Assembly (NCBI GenBank): GCA_947490615.1 | Contig: CANLHK010000009.1 | Coordinates: forward strand, 82,846-142,958 | From: Planctomycetaceae bacterium | Lineage (GTDB): Bacteria > Planctomycetota > Phycisphaerae > Phycisphaerales > SM1A02 | Length of the DNA stretch: 60,113 nt | Direction: 5' to 3' | In this document: piece by piece, positions 132-55,013 of the stretch | Numbering within the stretch: position 1 is the stretch's first letter | How the letters are laid out: every line of letters starts with the position of its first letter | The notes under the pieces: model-generated | The model's database searches: none | Told to the model about the DNA's origin: nothing | The model's input: the letters and a program-made list of their open reading frames with translations, nothing else | Made by a program: the position numbers and the translations under genes

Positions 132-169
132 ATCGACCGTCGAGGGGATTGAGATCCTCGACGGTCGAT
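132..169. terminator. perfect 14-bp hairpin, terminator-like
   Basis: ATCGACCGTCGAGG (132-145) pairs perfectly with CCTCGACGGTCGAT (156-169) around a 10-nt loop. A short T run follows on the plus strand and A runs precede it (around 109-113 and 124-127), so it could end transcription in either direction. The likeliest client is the gene that ends at base 48. Confidence 0.55.
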
Positions 170-469
170 TTGGCTCGAAGCGCTATCGTTATTGTTCTGA
201 TGCAACGCGACGGTTCCGCCTCCGCGCACATCAGCCCAGGGGTTGCCTAGGGTCCCTTTTCCAAAGCCTCCGCCCGAGCATTCTTCGAGCCAGCCGGGCG
301 GCTGTTCTTCGCCACAGGAGAAGAGACTGTTCGCCCGTCGGTTCTGCGCAAGAAGCGGAAAGAATTTCGCTCCGATGCTCCGATGGGCTCGGACCTTGCA
401 AATCGGAGCCCGCCTTCGGAGGCTTCGAGTTCACACCCGCCGATAGGTCGGAACTGGTCCGGCCTTCGT

Positions 470-32873: not shown

Positions 32874-34151
32874 TCAGAAGATCGTGGGAACGCGCTTCGA
32901 GCTCAGGAGCAGATGAAGCGGAACATCGCTTCGATCGAAAAGCACAGCGCTCTCGTAGTCCTGGTGAACGAGCAAATGTGCGCGACCCTGCGCCACCGAC
33001 GGGCGATCGACCCACTCGCCCTCGGCGGCAGCTCCAAGAATCTCGCGCGCGGAGCTCTCGAGCATTTCGTGAGTCACTGGCCGCGGTTGATTGAGTTCTT
33101 GTGGCGCCCGAGTTGATGTGAGCTTCCACGAGATCAGCGCGGAGTTGCGCAGATCGCCATAGAGCATCTCGAACCACTGCGCGTTGGCGAAGATGTCGCC
33201 CGTGAGAAACTGGCCTCCGAAGTAGACGAGCAGTCCTGACGCTCCAACGGCCGCTTGATTGGCCGCCGCAATGCGCTCAGCAGTGACAGTCTCCGTGGGC
33301 TCTCTTGTCCCCTCCTGCTCCATCCTCTGGCGGCGCCGCAGATAGCGCTGTTGCAGCACTCCAAGTTGGCGCAAGGTGAGATCGAGTGAGCGGCGGCCAA
33401 TCGTCGCTTGCTCGGTCAGACCGCCATCGAGCGCGCGCTGGATCGACTCGAGCATCTGCTGAGCATCGCGGTTGAGCGCAAGGATTCTGCGCTCAAGGAA
33501 GGCGAGCTCTTGGAGCAGTGCGGGGTCGGTGCACCCGACGATTGGTTGCCCTTCGGCGCGGCGCGCGTCCATCGTCTCGTAGCAGTTCAGGAGGTCGGCG
33601 CTCGTCGAGTGCGATTGGCACGCTCGAGAGAGCTGATCGATGTCTCGCCAAACCGTGCTCTGGTTCGCGCGGCATTCGCCGCTCGACCTCCGTGATTCGT
33701 GGACCGAGTGCATCTTGGATTGCCGGAGCGACGCGGGTTCGAAGCCACCGTGCTGAAATCGCGTCCCAGATTGGCCACTCCAACGCCCTCGCTCGACGCA
33801 AGTGACGGGAACGGCCGCGCTCTGACCCGCGTAGACGAGAATGTCGGCGTTGAGACCGCGGTTCTGTTTGCCGCCCTTCACGAGCTGTCCCGCGATGAGC
33901 AGGATGTCGAACGGCGAGAGGTTGGTGGCTCGCAATTGCGGCACGGACCCGCTGCCGGAGACTTCTTCGATCGCAAATCCCTCCACGGTGGGGTCACCGA
34001 ACAGGCGGACCGTTGGCGAGAGCTGCGATTCATTGCCGCTGCGAACAAAGACGAAGTCGAGGCCCGGCAGTAACGACACAACGCGGTAGGAGCCTCCATT
34101 TGTATCTGGTCGGAGAATATCGATGCGCTGCTTGCAGGTCTCGGTGTTCAT
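32874..34151 (-). CDS. ARPP-1 (DUF6569)-like protein
   Basis: A 425-aa protein without signal peptide or membrane helix. Residues about 20-290 match the ARPP-1 domain, best seen in NLSPFDILLIAGQLVKGGKQ and NRGLNADILVYAG (about 77-109). The name stands for a protein associated with ADP-ribosylglycohydrolase and rhodanese-phosphatase genes; its activity is not known. The C-terminal 130 residues (YFGGQFLTGDIFANAQWFEM) form a further part, possibly the remainder of the domain. The start at 34151 has a good GGAAGGA Shine-Dalgarno 6 nt upstream, and a near-consensus promoter lies about 180 bp further up, overlapped by an operator. It is divergent from an NrtR-like regulator. A role in NAD or ADP-ribose metabolism is inference. 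Confidence 0.68.
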   Translation of the reverse strand: MNTETCKQRIDILRPDTNGGSYRVVSLLPGLDFVFVRSGNESQLSPTVRLFGDPTVEGFAIEEVSGSGSVPQLRATNLSPFDILLIAGQLVKGGKQNRGLNADILVYAGQSAAVPVTCVERGRWSGQSGTRFQHGGFEPASLRQSKMHSVHESRRSSGECRANQSTVWRDIDQLSRACQSHSTSADLLNCYETMDARRAEGQPIVGCTDPALLQELAFLERRILALNRDAQQMLESIQRALDGGLTEQATIGRRSLDLTLRQLGVLQQRYLRRRQRMEQEGTREPTETVTAERIAAANQAAVGASGLLVYFGGQFLTGDIFANAQWFEMLYGDLRNSALISWKLTSTRAPQELNQPRPVTHEMLESSAREILGAAAEGEWVDRPSVAQGRAHLLVHQDYESAVLFDRSDVPLHLLLSSKRVPTIF

Positions 34152-34331
34152 GCAAAGTCCTTCCCCGCCTCGGGCGGAGTCATTGGGGGCGTCATGAGGG
34201 CGAGTGGCAGCCTCAGCGAAATCCCAGTAAAAACAGGGGTTTCCGCTGCTACTCGCCCACACAACACCCGAAGGTGGAGGATGATCGGCCAATCGAACCC
34301 ATCGCCAACGGCTCTGGATCGACGCTTGGAC

Positions 34332-34360
34332 AGATTACTTCTTCTCGGAGACGAAGTCAA
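34332..34360 (-). promoter_or_regulatory. sigma70-like promoter for the ARPP-1-like gene
   Basis: On the minus strand TTGACT (34360-34355) and TAATCT (34337-34332) are 17 bp apart, close to the bacterial consensus. The left operator arm (34339-34351) fills the spacer. The leader would be about 175 nt, unusually long for this window. Confidence 0.65.
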
Positions 34361-34386
34361 GTGATTTGTTTGCTCTCCGAGAAGAA
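34339..34386. promoter_or_regulatory. twin operator: 13-bp perfect inverted repeat
   Basis: TTCTTCTCGGAGA (34339-34351) recurs exactly inverted as TCTCCGAGAAGAA (34374-34386), with a 22-bp gap. Each arm holds a small dyad, TCTC-N-GAGA, whose centres are 31 bp apart, about three helical turns, so two dimers could sit on one face. The arms overlap both divergent promoters. The natural ligand is the NrtR-like protein encoded at 34420. Confidence 0.7.
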
Positions 34387-34398
34387 ATGTCGTAGAGT
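34370..34398 (+). promoter_or_regulatory. sigma70-like promoter for the NrtR-like regulator
   Basis: TTGCTC (34370-34375) and TAGAGT (34393-34398) are 17 bp apart. The right operator arm (34374-34386) overlaps the -35 edge and the spacer. The leader is about 15 nt. Confidence 0.55.
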
Positions 34399-34419
34399 CG
34401 ACCGAGACCAACCGAACTC

Positions 34420-35466
34420 ATGACCATGGAACGCTCGCGACCCCAACCGCAATCCTCGCTCTCTGTGGCGTTGGTGCTGTTCATCCTGACGCCAGAAGGA
34501 AAGGTTGAGACGGTGGGTGGGGAGGAGTTGACCGCTGGCCGCATGGCACCGGTTTCAGCAAGAACCACCGACCTCAGCAGCATCATTCAGAGGGAAATGA
34601 AGAGCGTCCTCCCGCTCGGAACGATCACCTCGCGGATGCGGCCACTGATGCCGCGCCTGCGCGCCGACGGTGTGGTCGTCTTACCAGTGTGGGCGACGGG
34701 CCGATTTGCGGAATCTGAGTTTGGCAACGATGCCGCGAGGACGAACCGTGGGTTTGCGTTTGGCGCGCTCGAGCGGCTCGCCGCGTCCCTGAACGATCCT
34801 TCCCTCGTCGTTGAAGCGCAAGGTGAATTCCGTCGCGCGCTCGCCGCCGATCCTGTTTCACACCAGCTGCTCGGCGAAGCCACGAGGATGCGAGCCCTCG
34901 CCATGGATGAACTCGCGCGACAGCCGAGCGCGGAAGAGATGCCGCCACTCCTTGGGATGTTGCCTCCAGCGTTCACGCTCGATCAATTGCATCTGGCCTT
35001 GAATGAGGCCGCACACTTGCAAGCGAGCGATGCACAGAAGTCAACGAACTTCCGTCGTCGAGTGGTTGATCTGATGCAGGCGGGAGTCCTCATCGATGAC
35101 GGCGATCGCGCGATGTCCGATCAGCGAGGTCGGCCTGCGAAGCTCTATCGATTCTCTCTGCGCGGCTGGCGGAATTGGTTGGAAGGGCGCGGCGCAGAGG
35201 CACGCGAGTTCTCGAGATACGAGCAGCGGTGGGCTCTCGAGGCGCGTGAAGCACCGTTCGACCCACGACAGGAGTTCGAGAAGAATTCTTTCGAATCACG
35301 GCTGCCACCGAGCCGGCTCGCTCTAAGTAATGCAGCGCCTGAAGGAGAGCCCGGTGCGGAACGCGTCGCACGATTGGAATCGTTGGTGCGCACGATGCGC
35401 GACGACCTTGCCAAACTGATGAAACCAGGGTCTGCGGGAAAGCTCGGCGATTCGCCCAAAGAGTGA
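34420..35466 (+). CDS. NrtR-like transcription regulator
   Basis: A 348-aa cytosolic protein. The N-terminal part (about 14-175) begins with a Nudix-like strand (SSLSVALVLFILTPEGKVE), but the catalytic Nudix box is absent, as in the Nudix-derived regulators of NAD metabolism. Residues about 184-247 resemble the NrtR winged helix: PAFTLDQLHLAL, then STNFRRRVVDLMQAGVLI, then QRGRPAKLYRFS. The last 100 residues add a charged region and a coiled coil (ERVARLESLVRTMRDDLAKL). Known NrtR proteins bind ADP-ribose. It is divergent from the ARPP-1-like gene, and its promoter is overlapped by an operator arm, pointing to autoregulation. The regulator family call rests mainly on the wing motif. Confidence 0.65.
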   Translation: MTMERSRPQPQSSLSVALVLFILTPEGKVETVGGEELTAGRMAPVSARTTDLSSIIQREMKSVLPLGTITSRMRPLMPRLRADGVVVLPVWATGRFAESEFGNDAARTNRGFAFGALERLAASLNDPSLVVEAQGEFRRALAADPVSHQLLGEATRMRALAMDELARQPSAEEMPPLLGMLPPAFTLDQLHLALNEAAHLQASDAQKSTNFRRRVVDLMQAGVLIDDGDRAMSDQRGRPAKLYRFSLRGWRNWLEGRGAEAREFSRYEQRWALEAREAPFDPRQEFEKNSFESRLPPSRLALSNAAPEGEPGAERVARLESLVRTMRDDLAKLMKPGSAGKLGDSPKE

Positions 35467-53591: not shown

Positions 53592-54974
53592 TCAAGCGTG
53601 CCGACGAACGGCGCGCGTCGTGCGCGCGTTGGCGTCAGCGGCGTTCACGCCCGTGAAGCGCTCGGCAAGTGGATCCCAACTCAGCGGCGTGCCGAGCTCG
53701 TAGCCGATGTTGCAGAGTTGGCAGATGGTCGCGGTGCGGTGGCCGATTTCCGCTGTGGCGATGGGGTCGCGCCCCGTGCGGATCGCGTCGAGGAAGTCTG
53801 CGATGTGCGATCGATTGCGAGGGAGCGCGAGTTCACCTTCGCGTGGCGGCGCGAGCAGCGCGGGCGCGTCAGGCGCTGCGCGATCGTTGCCGTGGTAGGC
53901 GCGGACATGACCGCGCGAGCACTCGATGGTTCCTTCGCTTCCAACGAAAGTGCAGTCGGTCGGACCACCGTGGATCATCTCGACGCCGTTGGCATAGACG
54001 AAGCGAAGCCCCGACTTGGCGCCGTCTGCTGGAGGGATCACTTCGACGGGACCTGACGCATCCATGCCCAACGCCCATTGCGCGATGTCAAAGTGGTGCG
54101 CGCCCATGTCGCCGAGTCCGCCGTTGGCATACTCGCGATAGGAGCGCCACTTTGGATAGCGATCGTGCATGCCGATCGGGCAGAGCTCGTGGTTGAAGCC
54201 GCGCATCGGCGCTTGCCCGAGCCAGCCCGACCAATCGATGTCAGTTGGACAAGTCTCTTCAGGAAGATCGCAGGGAATCGGCGACTCACCGATGCCGATG
54301 GTCACGCGTTGGATCGCACCGATGCGGCCGTTGCGCACGGCTTCTGCGGCGCGCACGAAGTAGTGACCAAACTCGGAGCGCTGCTGGCAACCCGTCTGAA
54401 ATCGGATCTGCGCCTTGCGCGCTGCGTCGGCGATGGCGCGTCCTTCGGCGATGGTCAACGAAAGCGGCTTCTCGCAGAAGACATGCTTTCCAGCAAGCGC
54501 TGCACAGATCGCGGGCTCCGCGTGCCAGTGGTCAGGCGTCGCGATGATGACCGCATCAATCGAAGGGTTGGCGATGATCTCGCGCCACGAAGGCGCGGCC
54601 GTGCAGATCGGCGCGGTGCGGCGCTCATTGACGAGTCGCGCACCAGTCGTCGCGCGCGCCGAGGCGACATCGGCGACCGAGATGATCTCGACTCCATCGT
54701 CGTCGAGGAAGCCGCCATAGATCTCACGCGCGCGAACTCCAAAGCCGATGATCGCGAGTTGCATGCGATTGTTGGCACTCGTCTGCGCAGGGCGGGCGAG
54801 CGCGACGCGCGGAGTGGCAGTGCCAAGAGCCGCGAGTGCGGCGGTCGAGATGGTCGCGTTGCGAAGGAACTCGCGGCGCGAAGGCGAGGCGGCGGTGATG
54901 GTGATGGCAGTGGCTGGCGTCGGCACGCGCCAAGGCTCGCAGGAGGAGAGGGCGGATGCAAGTCGCGCCTGCAT
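53592..54974 (-). CDS. Gfo/Idh/MocA oxidoreductase with Tat signal
   Basis: A 460-aa protein. A long leader carries SRREFLRNATISTAALAAL (about 32-50), a Tat signal. The Rossmann domain starts at LAIIGFGVRAREIYG (about 73) and the EKP motif is in HVFCEKPLSLTIAEGR (about 158-173). The C-terminal domain has DIDWSGWLGQAPMRGFN and YREYANGGLGDMGAHHFDIA (about 252-290). It is similar in build to the 49654 protein but not adjacent. The start is uncertain because no -10 or Shine-Dalgarno site supports ATG 54974; a GTG about 45 nt further in would still keep the Tat motif. Confidence 0.9.
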   Translation of the reverse strand: MQARLASALSSCEPWRVPTPATAITITAASPSRREFLRNATISTAALAALGTATPRVALARPAQTSANNRMQLAIIGFGVRAREIYGGFLDDDGVEIISVADVASARATTGARLVNERRTAPICTAAPSWREIIANPSIDAVIIATPDHWHAEPAICAALAGKHVFCEKPLSLTIAEGRAIADAARKAQIRFQTGCQQRSEFGHYFVRAAEAVRNGRIGAIQRVTIGIGESPIPCDLPEETCPTDIDWSGWLGQAPMRGFNHELCPIGMHDRYPKWRSYREYANGGLGDMGAHHFDIAQWALGMDASGPVEVIPPADGAKSGLRFVYANGVEMIHGGPTDCTFVGSEGTIECSRGHVRAYHGNDRAAPDAPALLAPPREGELALPRNRSHIADFLDAIRTGRDPIATAEIGHRTATICQLCNIGYELGTPLSWDPLAERFTGVNAADANARTTRAVRRHA

Positions 54975-55013
54975 CCGCCCTCACGCGATGGCCAAAGGGT
55001 CGGAGCACCGATG

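What the first reader, a model, noticed from the sequence alone, without database searches (positions are those of the whole stretch)
32874..35466. ARPP-1-like gene and NrtR-like regulator form a compact divergent module with a built-in twin operator
A perfect 13-bp inverted repeat (34339-34351 and 34374-34386) overlaps two divergent sigma70-like promoters, each with 17-bp spacing. The inner TCTC-N-GAGA dyads are 31 bp apart, about three turns. The regulator resembles NrtR, whose known relatives sense ADP-ribose and control NAD genes; the partner carries an ARPP-1 domain of unknown activity known from ADP-ribose-linked gene neighbourhoods. I infer a two-gene circuit in which the regulator shuts off both genes until a nucleotide-derived signal appears. 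No NAD-salvage gene is adjacent, which makes the ARPP-1-like protein itself the main target.
Basis: partly seen in the sequence, partly recalled or inferred. Interest (0 to 1): 0.75.

Follow-up and report, generated by a model that had tools for sequence, protein, structure and literature searches.

The report
Self-contained ARPP-1 gene and repressor switch
In a small group of planctomycete bacteria, a putative enzyme of unknown activity linked to ADP-ribose biology is paired back-to-back with its own dedicated, probably nucleotide-sensing repressor, whose likely DNA target lies between the two genes.

Summary
The observation largely holds: the 13-bp inverted repeat is exact and did not arise in 5000 shuffles of the 268-bp gap. 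The genes are a full ARPP-1 (PF20208) and a regulator with the NrtR-family fold. Ten of 11 clear ARPP-1 genes in 181 genomes of the family have the same regulator divergently beside them. The perfect repeat is special to the window. What relatives keep is a ~65-bp block: back-to-back promoter-like elements; a 21-bp palindrome in the ARPP-1 promoter (7 or more of 10 in 5 of 7 genomes, window included; lost in one); and a second GAgAAnAA arm 31 bp on. I read it as a local repressor switch; ligand, binding and repression are inferred. New details: no ADP-ribosylglycohydrolase found in this genome; a helical-hairpin insertion only in this ARPP-1 lineage (10 of 10 against 0 of 69 measurable others); a conserved C-terminal helix on the regulator; in a sister genus the orthologous regulator faces a vWA-like gene. 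ARPP and its Nudix/WYL regulators are published (PMC9503650), so this is a new variant of a known kind.

The parts
32874..34151 (-). ARPP-1 gene (425 aa); conserved C118, Q96, R98, Q164, W168, H413; helical-hairpin insertion at about residues 207-283
   Evidence: PF20208 E 1.3e-46, 159.7 bits against cut-off 27; conserved residues; model pLDDT 91.4; insertion
34420..35466 (+). NrtR-family regulator (348 aa): Nudix-like domain without Nudix box, winged helix, low-confidence linker, C-terminal helix at about residues 312-334 (possible coiled coil)
   Evidence: PF21906 28.6 bits against cut-off 27; AraR Z 13.2, NrtR-DNA Z 11.2, NadQ Z 9.4; no Nudix box; helix, tail motif
34337..34357 (.). O1: 21-bp palindrome (9 of 10 half-positions), in the spacer of the ARPP-1 promoter
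   Evidence: Palindrome scores 9,8,7,8,7,5,2 of 10 in seven genomes against a background mean of 2.66
34368..34388 (.). O2: weaker 21-bp dyad (7 of 10 here); its right arm GAGAAGAA is conserved; in the spacer of the regulator promoter
   Evidence: Scores 7,6,4,2,3,3,5 of 10; arm consensus GAgAA.AA
34339..34351 (.). left arm of the perfect 13-bp inverted repeat
   Evidence: perfect only in the window among the loci aligned
34374..34386 (.). right arm of the perfect 13-bp inverted repeat
34332..34360 (-). ARPP-1 promoter-like: TTGACT (34360-34355), 17 bp, TAATCT (34337-34332)
   Evidence: read from the sequence; TAnnnT at 17 bp in 5 of 8 genomes; below the threshold of the consensus scan
34370..34398 (+). 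regulator promoter-like: TTGCTC (34370-34375), 17 bp, TAGAGT (34393-34398)
   Evidence: read from the sequence; TAnnnT in 8 of 8 genomes; below the threshold of the consensus scan

Best explanation
A two-gene local switch. An NrtR-family repressor dimer binds O1 between the -35 and -10 of the ARPP-1 promoter and, more weakly or with help from a second dimer, the GAgAAnAA arm three helical turns away in its own promoter. It thereby silences ARPP-1 and itself. Its degenerate Nudix domain senses a small nucleotide-type ligand (ADP-ribose, NAD or ATP class; not shown), which releases it and induces ARPP-1. ARPP-1 then acts, probably through its invariant Cys/Gln/Arg/Trp/His set, on a ribose-bearing product such as ADP-ribose or an adduct (inferred from the published contexts of the family). 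Shown by computation: gene pairing, fold class, the conserved block, and that the exact motif occurs only here in the genus. Inferred: binding, repression, ligand, enzymatic activity.
For: Fold: all 17 Foldseek matches at E <= 0.001 are AraR, NadQ or NrtR chains. Pairing: 10 of 11 clear ARPP-1 genes in 181 family genomes have the regulator divergently adjacent. Block: mean pairwise identity 0.49-0.80 per 10-bp block from -20 to +39, against 0.17-0.27 outside -30 to +49; the promoter spacers, usually free to drift, are among the conserved blocks. O1 is the best palindrome centre in the region: mean 6.57 of 10 against 2.66 +/- 0.83 over all odd centres. Local action: exact motif hits in 16 genus genomes are 3, all at this locus. 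Family precedent: NrtR palindrome between regulator and target with autorepression (PMC6800001, passages); 21-bp AraR sites in tandem pairs (PMC4666351, passages). ARPP-1: its conserved set is fully present. Published inference that Nudix/WYL regulators keep ADP-ribosylglycohydrolase-linked ARPP systems off until ADP-ribose-type ligands appear (PMC9503650, section 3.8).
Against: No binding, expression or ligand data. The Pfam match of the regulator is marginal (28.6 against 27 bits) and the NCBIfam NrtR equivalog cut-off is far from met (14.2 against 400). The regulator model is mediocre (pLDDT 72.7, 9 sequences), and a plain MutT/Nudix entry ties with NadQ at Z 9.4. O1 is not palindromic in G003 (2 of 10) and half so in G002 (5 of 10) although both carry the regulator; O2 is weak outside the window. 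The 19-bp motif, modelled on the window and its nearest relatives, is missed at this locus even with 2 mismatches in 4 of 9 regulator-bearing genus genomes (G002, G003, G005, G012), and its total count (141) is hardly above that of the reversed control (133). G031, G434 and G005 have blocks too diverged for the same ungapped comparison. The genus tally ignores relatedness and contig breaks.
Confidence: 0.6

Rival explanations
1. The regulator is an NrtR-family repressor of this pair but senses a sugar or other non-nucleotide ligand, as AraR does; ARPP-1 acts in carbohydrate handling rather than on ADP-ribose.
For: AraR, an L-arabinose sensor, is the best structural match (Z 13.2 against 11.2 for NrtR). 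The window neighbourhood holds a sulfatase, a metallopeptidase with dockerin and a polysaccharide-export gene. Published ARPP contexts include an exported deacetylase/glycosidase partner (PMC9503650).
Against: By sequence the regulator is nearer NadQ than AraR (8.7e-6 against 0.027), though both matches cover only the DNA-binding part. The neighbours are not constant: in G002 and G006 the polysaccharide-export gene (by resemblance of its sequence, not scanned) is next, without the peptidase. In a sister genus the partner is vWA-like, and vWA is a listed part of the published ADP-ribosylglycohydrolase networks.
Confidence: 0.2
2. The block is conserved mainly because it holds two overlapping divergent promoters; the inverted repeat is incidental and the regulator acts elsewhere or as an activator.
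For: The most conserved stretch is GAAGTCAAG, which contains the ARPP-1 -35 (also the anchor of that alignment). The perfect repeat is confined to the window. G006 keeps ARPP-1 and part of the block without any regulator.
Against: Promoter spacers are as conserved as the promoter boxes. O1 palindromicity exceeds every other centre in the region. In G006 (no regulator) O1 scores 2 of 10, although G003 shows the same with a regulator. No other exact site exists in the 16 genus genomes.
Confidence: 0.15
3. The pair is a piece of an ADP-ribosylglycohydrolase-centred anti-phage system whose other genes lie elsewhere in the genome.
For: ARPP, Nudix TF and vWA are all listed parts of such systems (PMC9503650).
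Against: No ADP_ribosyl_GH match in the window genome (97% complete), and in only 2 of 18 genomes with the pair, half of it or the vWA-paired regulator, and then on other contigs. No PADLOC match beyond a weak ZorA coiled-coil hit, E 0.019. No phage match for ARPP-1 and no plasmid match for the regulator.
Confidence: 0.1

Closest known systems
ARPP two-gene neighbourhoods and ADP-ribosylglycohydrolase systems with Nudix or WYL regulators (Iyer et al. 2022, PMC9503650)
   Same: ARPP domain with the invariant Cys and Gln; a one-component negative regulator beside it; regulator of the Nudix-HTH type.
   Different: The paper puts Nudix regulators in ADP-ribosylglycohydrolase systems and lists WYL, HIRAN or a deacetylase as partner in two-gene ARPP neighbourhoods. 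Here a Nudix-type regulator is the divergent partner, without a linked glycohydrolase, and ARPP-1 has an added helical hairpin.
NrtR family (SoNrtR, MsNrtR)
   Same: Nudix-like plus winged-helix fold (Z 11.2); no intact Nudix box; palindromic site between regulator and target.
   Different: Target is ARPP-1, not NAD genes; long linker and C-terminal helix; no NrtR in the profile search of the PDB up to E 1.
NadQ of Agrobacterium
   Same: Nearest solved relative by sequence in the DNA-binding part (E 8.7e-6); fold match Z 9.4.
   Different: No detectable sequence match in the sensor domain; partner gene ARPP-1; extra tail.
AraR of Bacteroides (PMC4666351)
   Same: Best structural match (Z 13.2); 21-bp semipalindromic sites that can occur as pairs.
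   Different: Controls arabinose genes; AraR_C Pfam model below cut-off here (21.6 against 23.8).

Membership tests
ARPP-1 (PF20208) | Pfam gathering score | tested here: met
   159.7 bits against 27
ARPP-1 (PF20208) | absolutely conserved Cys and Gln (paper) and the wider invariant set | tested here: met
   C118, Q96, R98, R123, W124, Q164, W168, H413 in 40 of 40 sequences aligned, window included; these are the best-scoring ones
ARPP-1 (PF20208) | enzymatic activity on ribose/ADP-ribose | not testable with these tools
   predicted, not shown, in the one paper found that describes the domain
[quoted passage not shown]
   17 of 17 Foldseek matches at E <= 0.001 are AraR/NadQ/NrtR chains; Z 13.2, 11.2, 9.4
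[quoted passage not shown]
   28.6 bits against 27, marginal
[quoted passage not shown]
   0 of 10 sequences have the box; at best 4 of 7 invariant positions
NrtR in the strict sense (ADP-ribose-responsive NAD repressor) | NCBIfam NrtR equivalog cut-off | tested here: not met
   14.2 bits against 400
NrtR in the strict sense (ADP-ribose-responsive NAD repressor) | beside NAD biosynthesis or salvage genes | tested here: not met
   the neighbours scanned are ARPP-1, sulfatase, metallopeptidase and polysaccharide export
NrtR in the strict sense (ADP-ribose-responsive NAD repressor) | binds ADP-ribose and is released from DNA | not testable with these tools
   no assay; the sensor domain gives no sequence-level match
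ADP-ribosylglycohydrolase-centred ARPP system | linked ADP-ribosylglycohydrolase gene | tested here: not met
   0 in the window genome; 2 of 18 related genomes, on other contigs

The most novel reading that the evidence does not exclude
A lineage-specific ARPP switch in which the repressor's C-terminal helix, as a coiled coil, bridges two dimers over two sites three turns apart, while the ARPP-1 of the same lineage carries a helical hairpin through which it contacts the regulator, so that ARPP-1 reports on its own substrate as a co-inducer or co-repressor. The same regulator has been rewired from ARPP-1 to a vWA-like protein in a sister genus.
Probability: 0.1. Interest if true: 0.75.

Novelty: new variant of a known kind. 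Interest (0 to 1): 0.5.

Why it matters
ARPP-1 is a widespread protein of unknown activity (484 relatives in one scan; 93 of 392 phylum genomes). Here it stands alone with a dedicated sensor-repressor, so finding the inducer of that regulator would point straight at the substrate of ARPP-1. The apparent swap of the target gene (ARPP-1 in two genera, vWA-like in a third) under one regulator ties two proposed parts of ADP-ribose networks together.

Tried and rejected
NAD regulon: rejected for this locus, no NAD gene among the five proteins scanned. The second NrtR_WHD protein of the genome (G000:C7:161290) is not beside recognisable NAD genes either, but only it and three neighbouring ORFs were scanned.

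Wider regulon: the 13-bp arm is exact at three places of the genome, two of them the repeat and one inside a coding-looking stretch. With up to one mismatch there are 15 against 2 for the reversed control; not followed up. The 19-bp motif with up to 2 mismatches gives 141 hits against 133 for the reversed control over 16 genus genomes.

22 matches in 21 genomes; none lies near a listed ARPP-1, the only one on the same contig being about 215 kb away (the ARPP-1 list is cut short). Among 71 ARPP-1 loci of other lineages (of the best 80 of 484), 102 neighbouring ORFs were scanned (46 divergent, 17 of 38 upstream same-strand, 39 of 43 downstream): WYL in 11, ADP_ribosyl_GH in 3; WYL in 6 of 46 divergent ones. 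NrtR_WHD is not among the families shown, but those lists are cut (25 of 69 and 25 of 31), so its absence there is not proved. These ORFs were picked mechanically.

Coiled coil of the regulator tail: a simple heptad score is reached by only 0-2 of 60 shuffles in 4 of 10 sequences, the window included, but by more (4 to 54 of 60) in the other six, so the coiled coil is an inference from a predicted helix and a recurring LE-x-M/x-V motif. A first count of the ARPP-1 insertion used 52 of 71 other loci, leaving out 19 of odd or cut length; re-counting them gave the same answer in 17, two being truncated.

ARPP-1 fold: no PDB match at E <= 0.001. The structural second look was swamped by the helical hairpin, so the beta domain is barely tested and I claim no new fold. 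No phage match for ARPP-1 and no plasmid match for the regulator. The single-sequence genome scan found nothing; the alignment scan did (its patterns include the CVEQG stretch, so conservation there is partly selected, unlike). The vWA label rests on recalled motifs (DRTGSM, TDGQEN); Pfam and NCBIfam list no vWA model and the PDB search gives nothing useful. Paper searches: ARPP-1 as a name, NrtR with Nudix and ADP-ribose, ADP-ribosylglycohydrolase with rhodanese and Nudix, NadQ, DUF6569, ADP-ribosylglycohydrolase with WYL and NrtR, NrtR with vWA and Planctomycetes. Of PMC9503650 I read section 31 whole and passages; of PMC4666351 and PMC6800001 passages only; PMC2330246 is not held.
Full report
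OBSERVATION. The two 13-bp arms are exactly where reported and fully complementary. In 5000 dinucleotide shuffles of the 268-bp gap no repeat of 13 bp or more with a gap up to 40 appeared; three such places exist in the whole window. A simple consensus scan finds no sigma-70 promoter there, so the promoter claim rests on conservation, below. The ARPP-1 gene runs 34151-32874 (-) and the regulator 34420-35466 (+).

THE PROTEINS. The minus-strand protein is a clear ARPP-1 (PF20208, 159.7 bits). In 40 aligned sequences (the window, nine relatives of its lineage and 30 others, the best-scoring ones) twelve positions are identical throughout, the start Met aside, among them Q96, R98, C118, R123, W124, Q164, W168 and H413. 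Its predicted structure is confident (pLDDT 91.4). Between W168 and G306 the ten members of this lineage have 129-157 residues. Of the 71 other loci, 69 could be measured and have 44-47 (two are truncated); the 30 others of the phylum set have 44-58 (the two sets may share genomes, and the weak, split ARPP-1 matches were not measured). The model shows two long helices there. The plus-strand protein scores marginally for NrtR_WHD (28.6 against 27 bits) and not as an NrtR equivalog. Its model (pLDDT 72.7, nine sequences) matches AraR, NadQ and NrtR over both domains. The Nudix box is missing in 10 of 10. A profile of ten relatives finds NadQ at 8.7e-6 and AraR at 0.027 in the PDB, in the DNA-binding part only. 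Beyond the winged helix comes a poorly ordered linker and a predicted helix. A motif of the type R-[VIL]-x-x-LE-x-M/x-V recurs in the tails of most relatives, including the six of the sister genus; G014, which runs off its contig, and G005 lack it. Whether it is a coiled coil is not established: the heptad score is clearly above shuffles in only 4 of 10.

PAIRING. Of 16 genus genomes, 9 have ARPP-1, 9 the regulator and 8 both (Fisher p 0.009, not corrected for relatedness). G012 has the regulator near a contig end. G006 has ARPP-1 without it, and a polysaccharide-export-like gene now abuts. In 181 family genomes, ARPP-1 is clear in 11 (a twelfth, G480, is a 31-bit fragment), and 10 of the 11 have the regulator divergently adjacent. 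Strong regulator matches exist in 17 genomes of three genera; seven further genomes have weak ones. In the third genus the divergent gene is vWA-like in 4 of 4 testable genomes, three of which are near-identical in sequence; two more regulators lie at contig ends. The vWA label is from recalled motifs and has no Pfam or NCBIfam support. In ARPP-1 genomes elsewhere in the phylum no NrtR_WHD match is near a listed ARPP-1 (80 of 92 genomes searched); WYL regulators are the commonest recognisable neighbour in the scans made, and G041 shows such a pair (L128 is the same contig by length).

THE OPERATOR. Eleven regulator gaps were looked at in genomes of this lineage: ten (G012 cut by its contig, so its ARPP-1 is not seen) and G434. 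Eight, all of the genus, align without gaps around AAGTCAAG, on which they were chosen. After leaving out G012, a near copy of G002, seven remain. Mean identity of 10-bp blocks is 0.66, 0.71, 0.80, 0.49, 0.75 and 0.67 from -20 to +39; 0.38 and 0.40 in the blocks on either side; and 0.17-0.27 farther out. Consensus: tTC.T....GAg.aGAAGTCAAG...Tt....Tg...tc.GAgAA.AA..g...TAg..T. The best palindrome centre is O1: 9 (window), 8, 7, 8, 7, 5 and 2 of 10, background mean 2.66. O2 scores 7, 6, 4, 2, 3, 3, 5. So the perfect inverted repeat is a property of the window, where both sites happen to be good; the pattern kept in the genus is one palindrome plus a second GAgAAnAA arm in direct orientation 31 bp from the first. 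TAnnnT stands 17 bp from the ARPP-1 -35 in 5 of 8 and at the regulator -10 in 8 of 8. O1 lies almost wholly between the ARPP-1 -35 and -10. G005 and the second genus (G031, G434) have related but diverged blocks and were left out of these counts. The exact 19-bp motif occurs at three places in 16 genomes, all at this locus; with 2 mismatches it is at background (141 against 133 for the control) and misses this locus in G002, G003, G005 and G012. G006, without regulator, scores 2 of 10 at O1, but so does G003 with one. The vWA-paired regulators have different palindromes in their gaps, as expected if operator and partner changed together; this was not tested further.

MECHANISM. Position of O1 inside a promoter spacer, NrtR-family precedent (autorepressor with a palindrome between regulator and target, PMC6800001; paired 21-bp sites, PMC4666351) and the published reading of Nudix regulators as negative switches (PMC9503650) make repression of both genes the best reading. 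The ligand is open: NrtR senses ADP-ribose, NadQ was crystallised with NAD and ATP (titles), AraR senses arabinose. ADP-ribosylglycohydrolase was not found in the window genome and is found in only 2 of 18 related genomes that carry the pair, half of it or the vWA-paired regulator, on other contigs, so ARPP-1 here does not seem to depend on it.

NOVELTY. ARPP and its Nudix or WYL regulators are published (PMC9503650, section 3.8 read). That text lists WYL, HIRAN and a deacetylase as partners in two-gene ARPP neighbourhoods, and Nudix regulators in the glycohydrolase systems. A glycohydrolase-free ARPP-1/Nudix-regulator pair with this operator, the hairpin insertion, the tail helix and the swap to a vWA-like gene are not described in what I saw of the papers found; figures and supplements were not seen. 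It is a new variant of a known kind. The order (Phycisphaerales) is inferred from a same-order relative whose contig matches a named Phycisphaeraceae record by length.

CHANGES AFTER CHECKING.

Noticed in passing
L182 1509-3486; L221, L222, L223: Orthologous regulators of a sister genus are divergent to a vWA-like gene (recalled motifs DRTGSM, TDGQEN; no Pfam or NCBIfam match), not to ARPP-1.
   Followed up: partly
L042 7252-8286 (-), G000:C7:161290: A second NrtR_WHD protein in the window genome, with an N-terminal domain that shows no Nudix box by eye, not beside recognisable NAD genes in the ORFs scanned.
   Followed up: partly
L105 upstream of 2958 (G006): ARPP-1 kept but regulator lost; a polysaccharide-export-like gene has moved next to it and O1 scores only 2 of 10, a natural test case for the operator.
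   Followed up: partly
window 32877-34151 (-), residues 207-283: Helical-hairpin insertion in ARPP-1 found in 10 of 10 members of this lineage and 0 of 69 measurable others.
   Followed up: partly
whole genome G000: The 13-bp arm with up to one mismatch occurs 15 times against 2 for the reversed control; only one place has paired arms.
   Followed up: no
window 132-170 and 54948-54982: Two other perfect inverted repeats of 13 bp or more with short spacing.
   Followed up: no
L032 3243-5403: In a Phycisphaeraceae relative ARPP-1 is divergent to a WYL/WCX regulator, a published partner type.
   Followed up: partly
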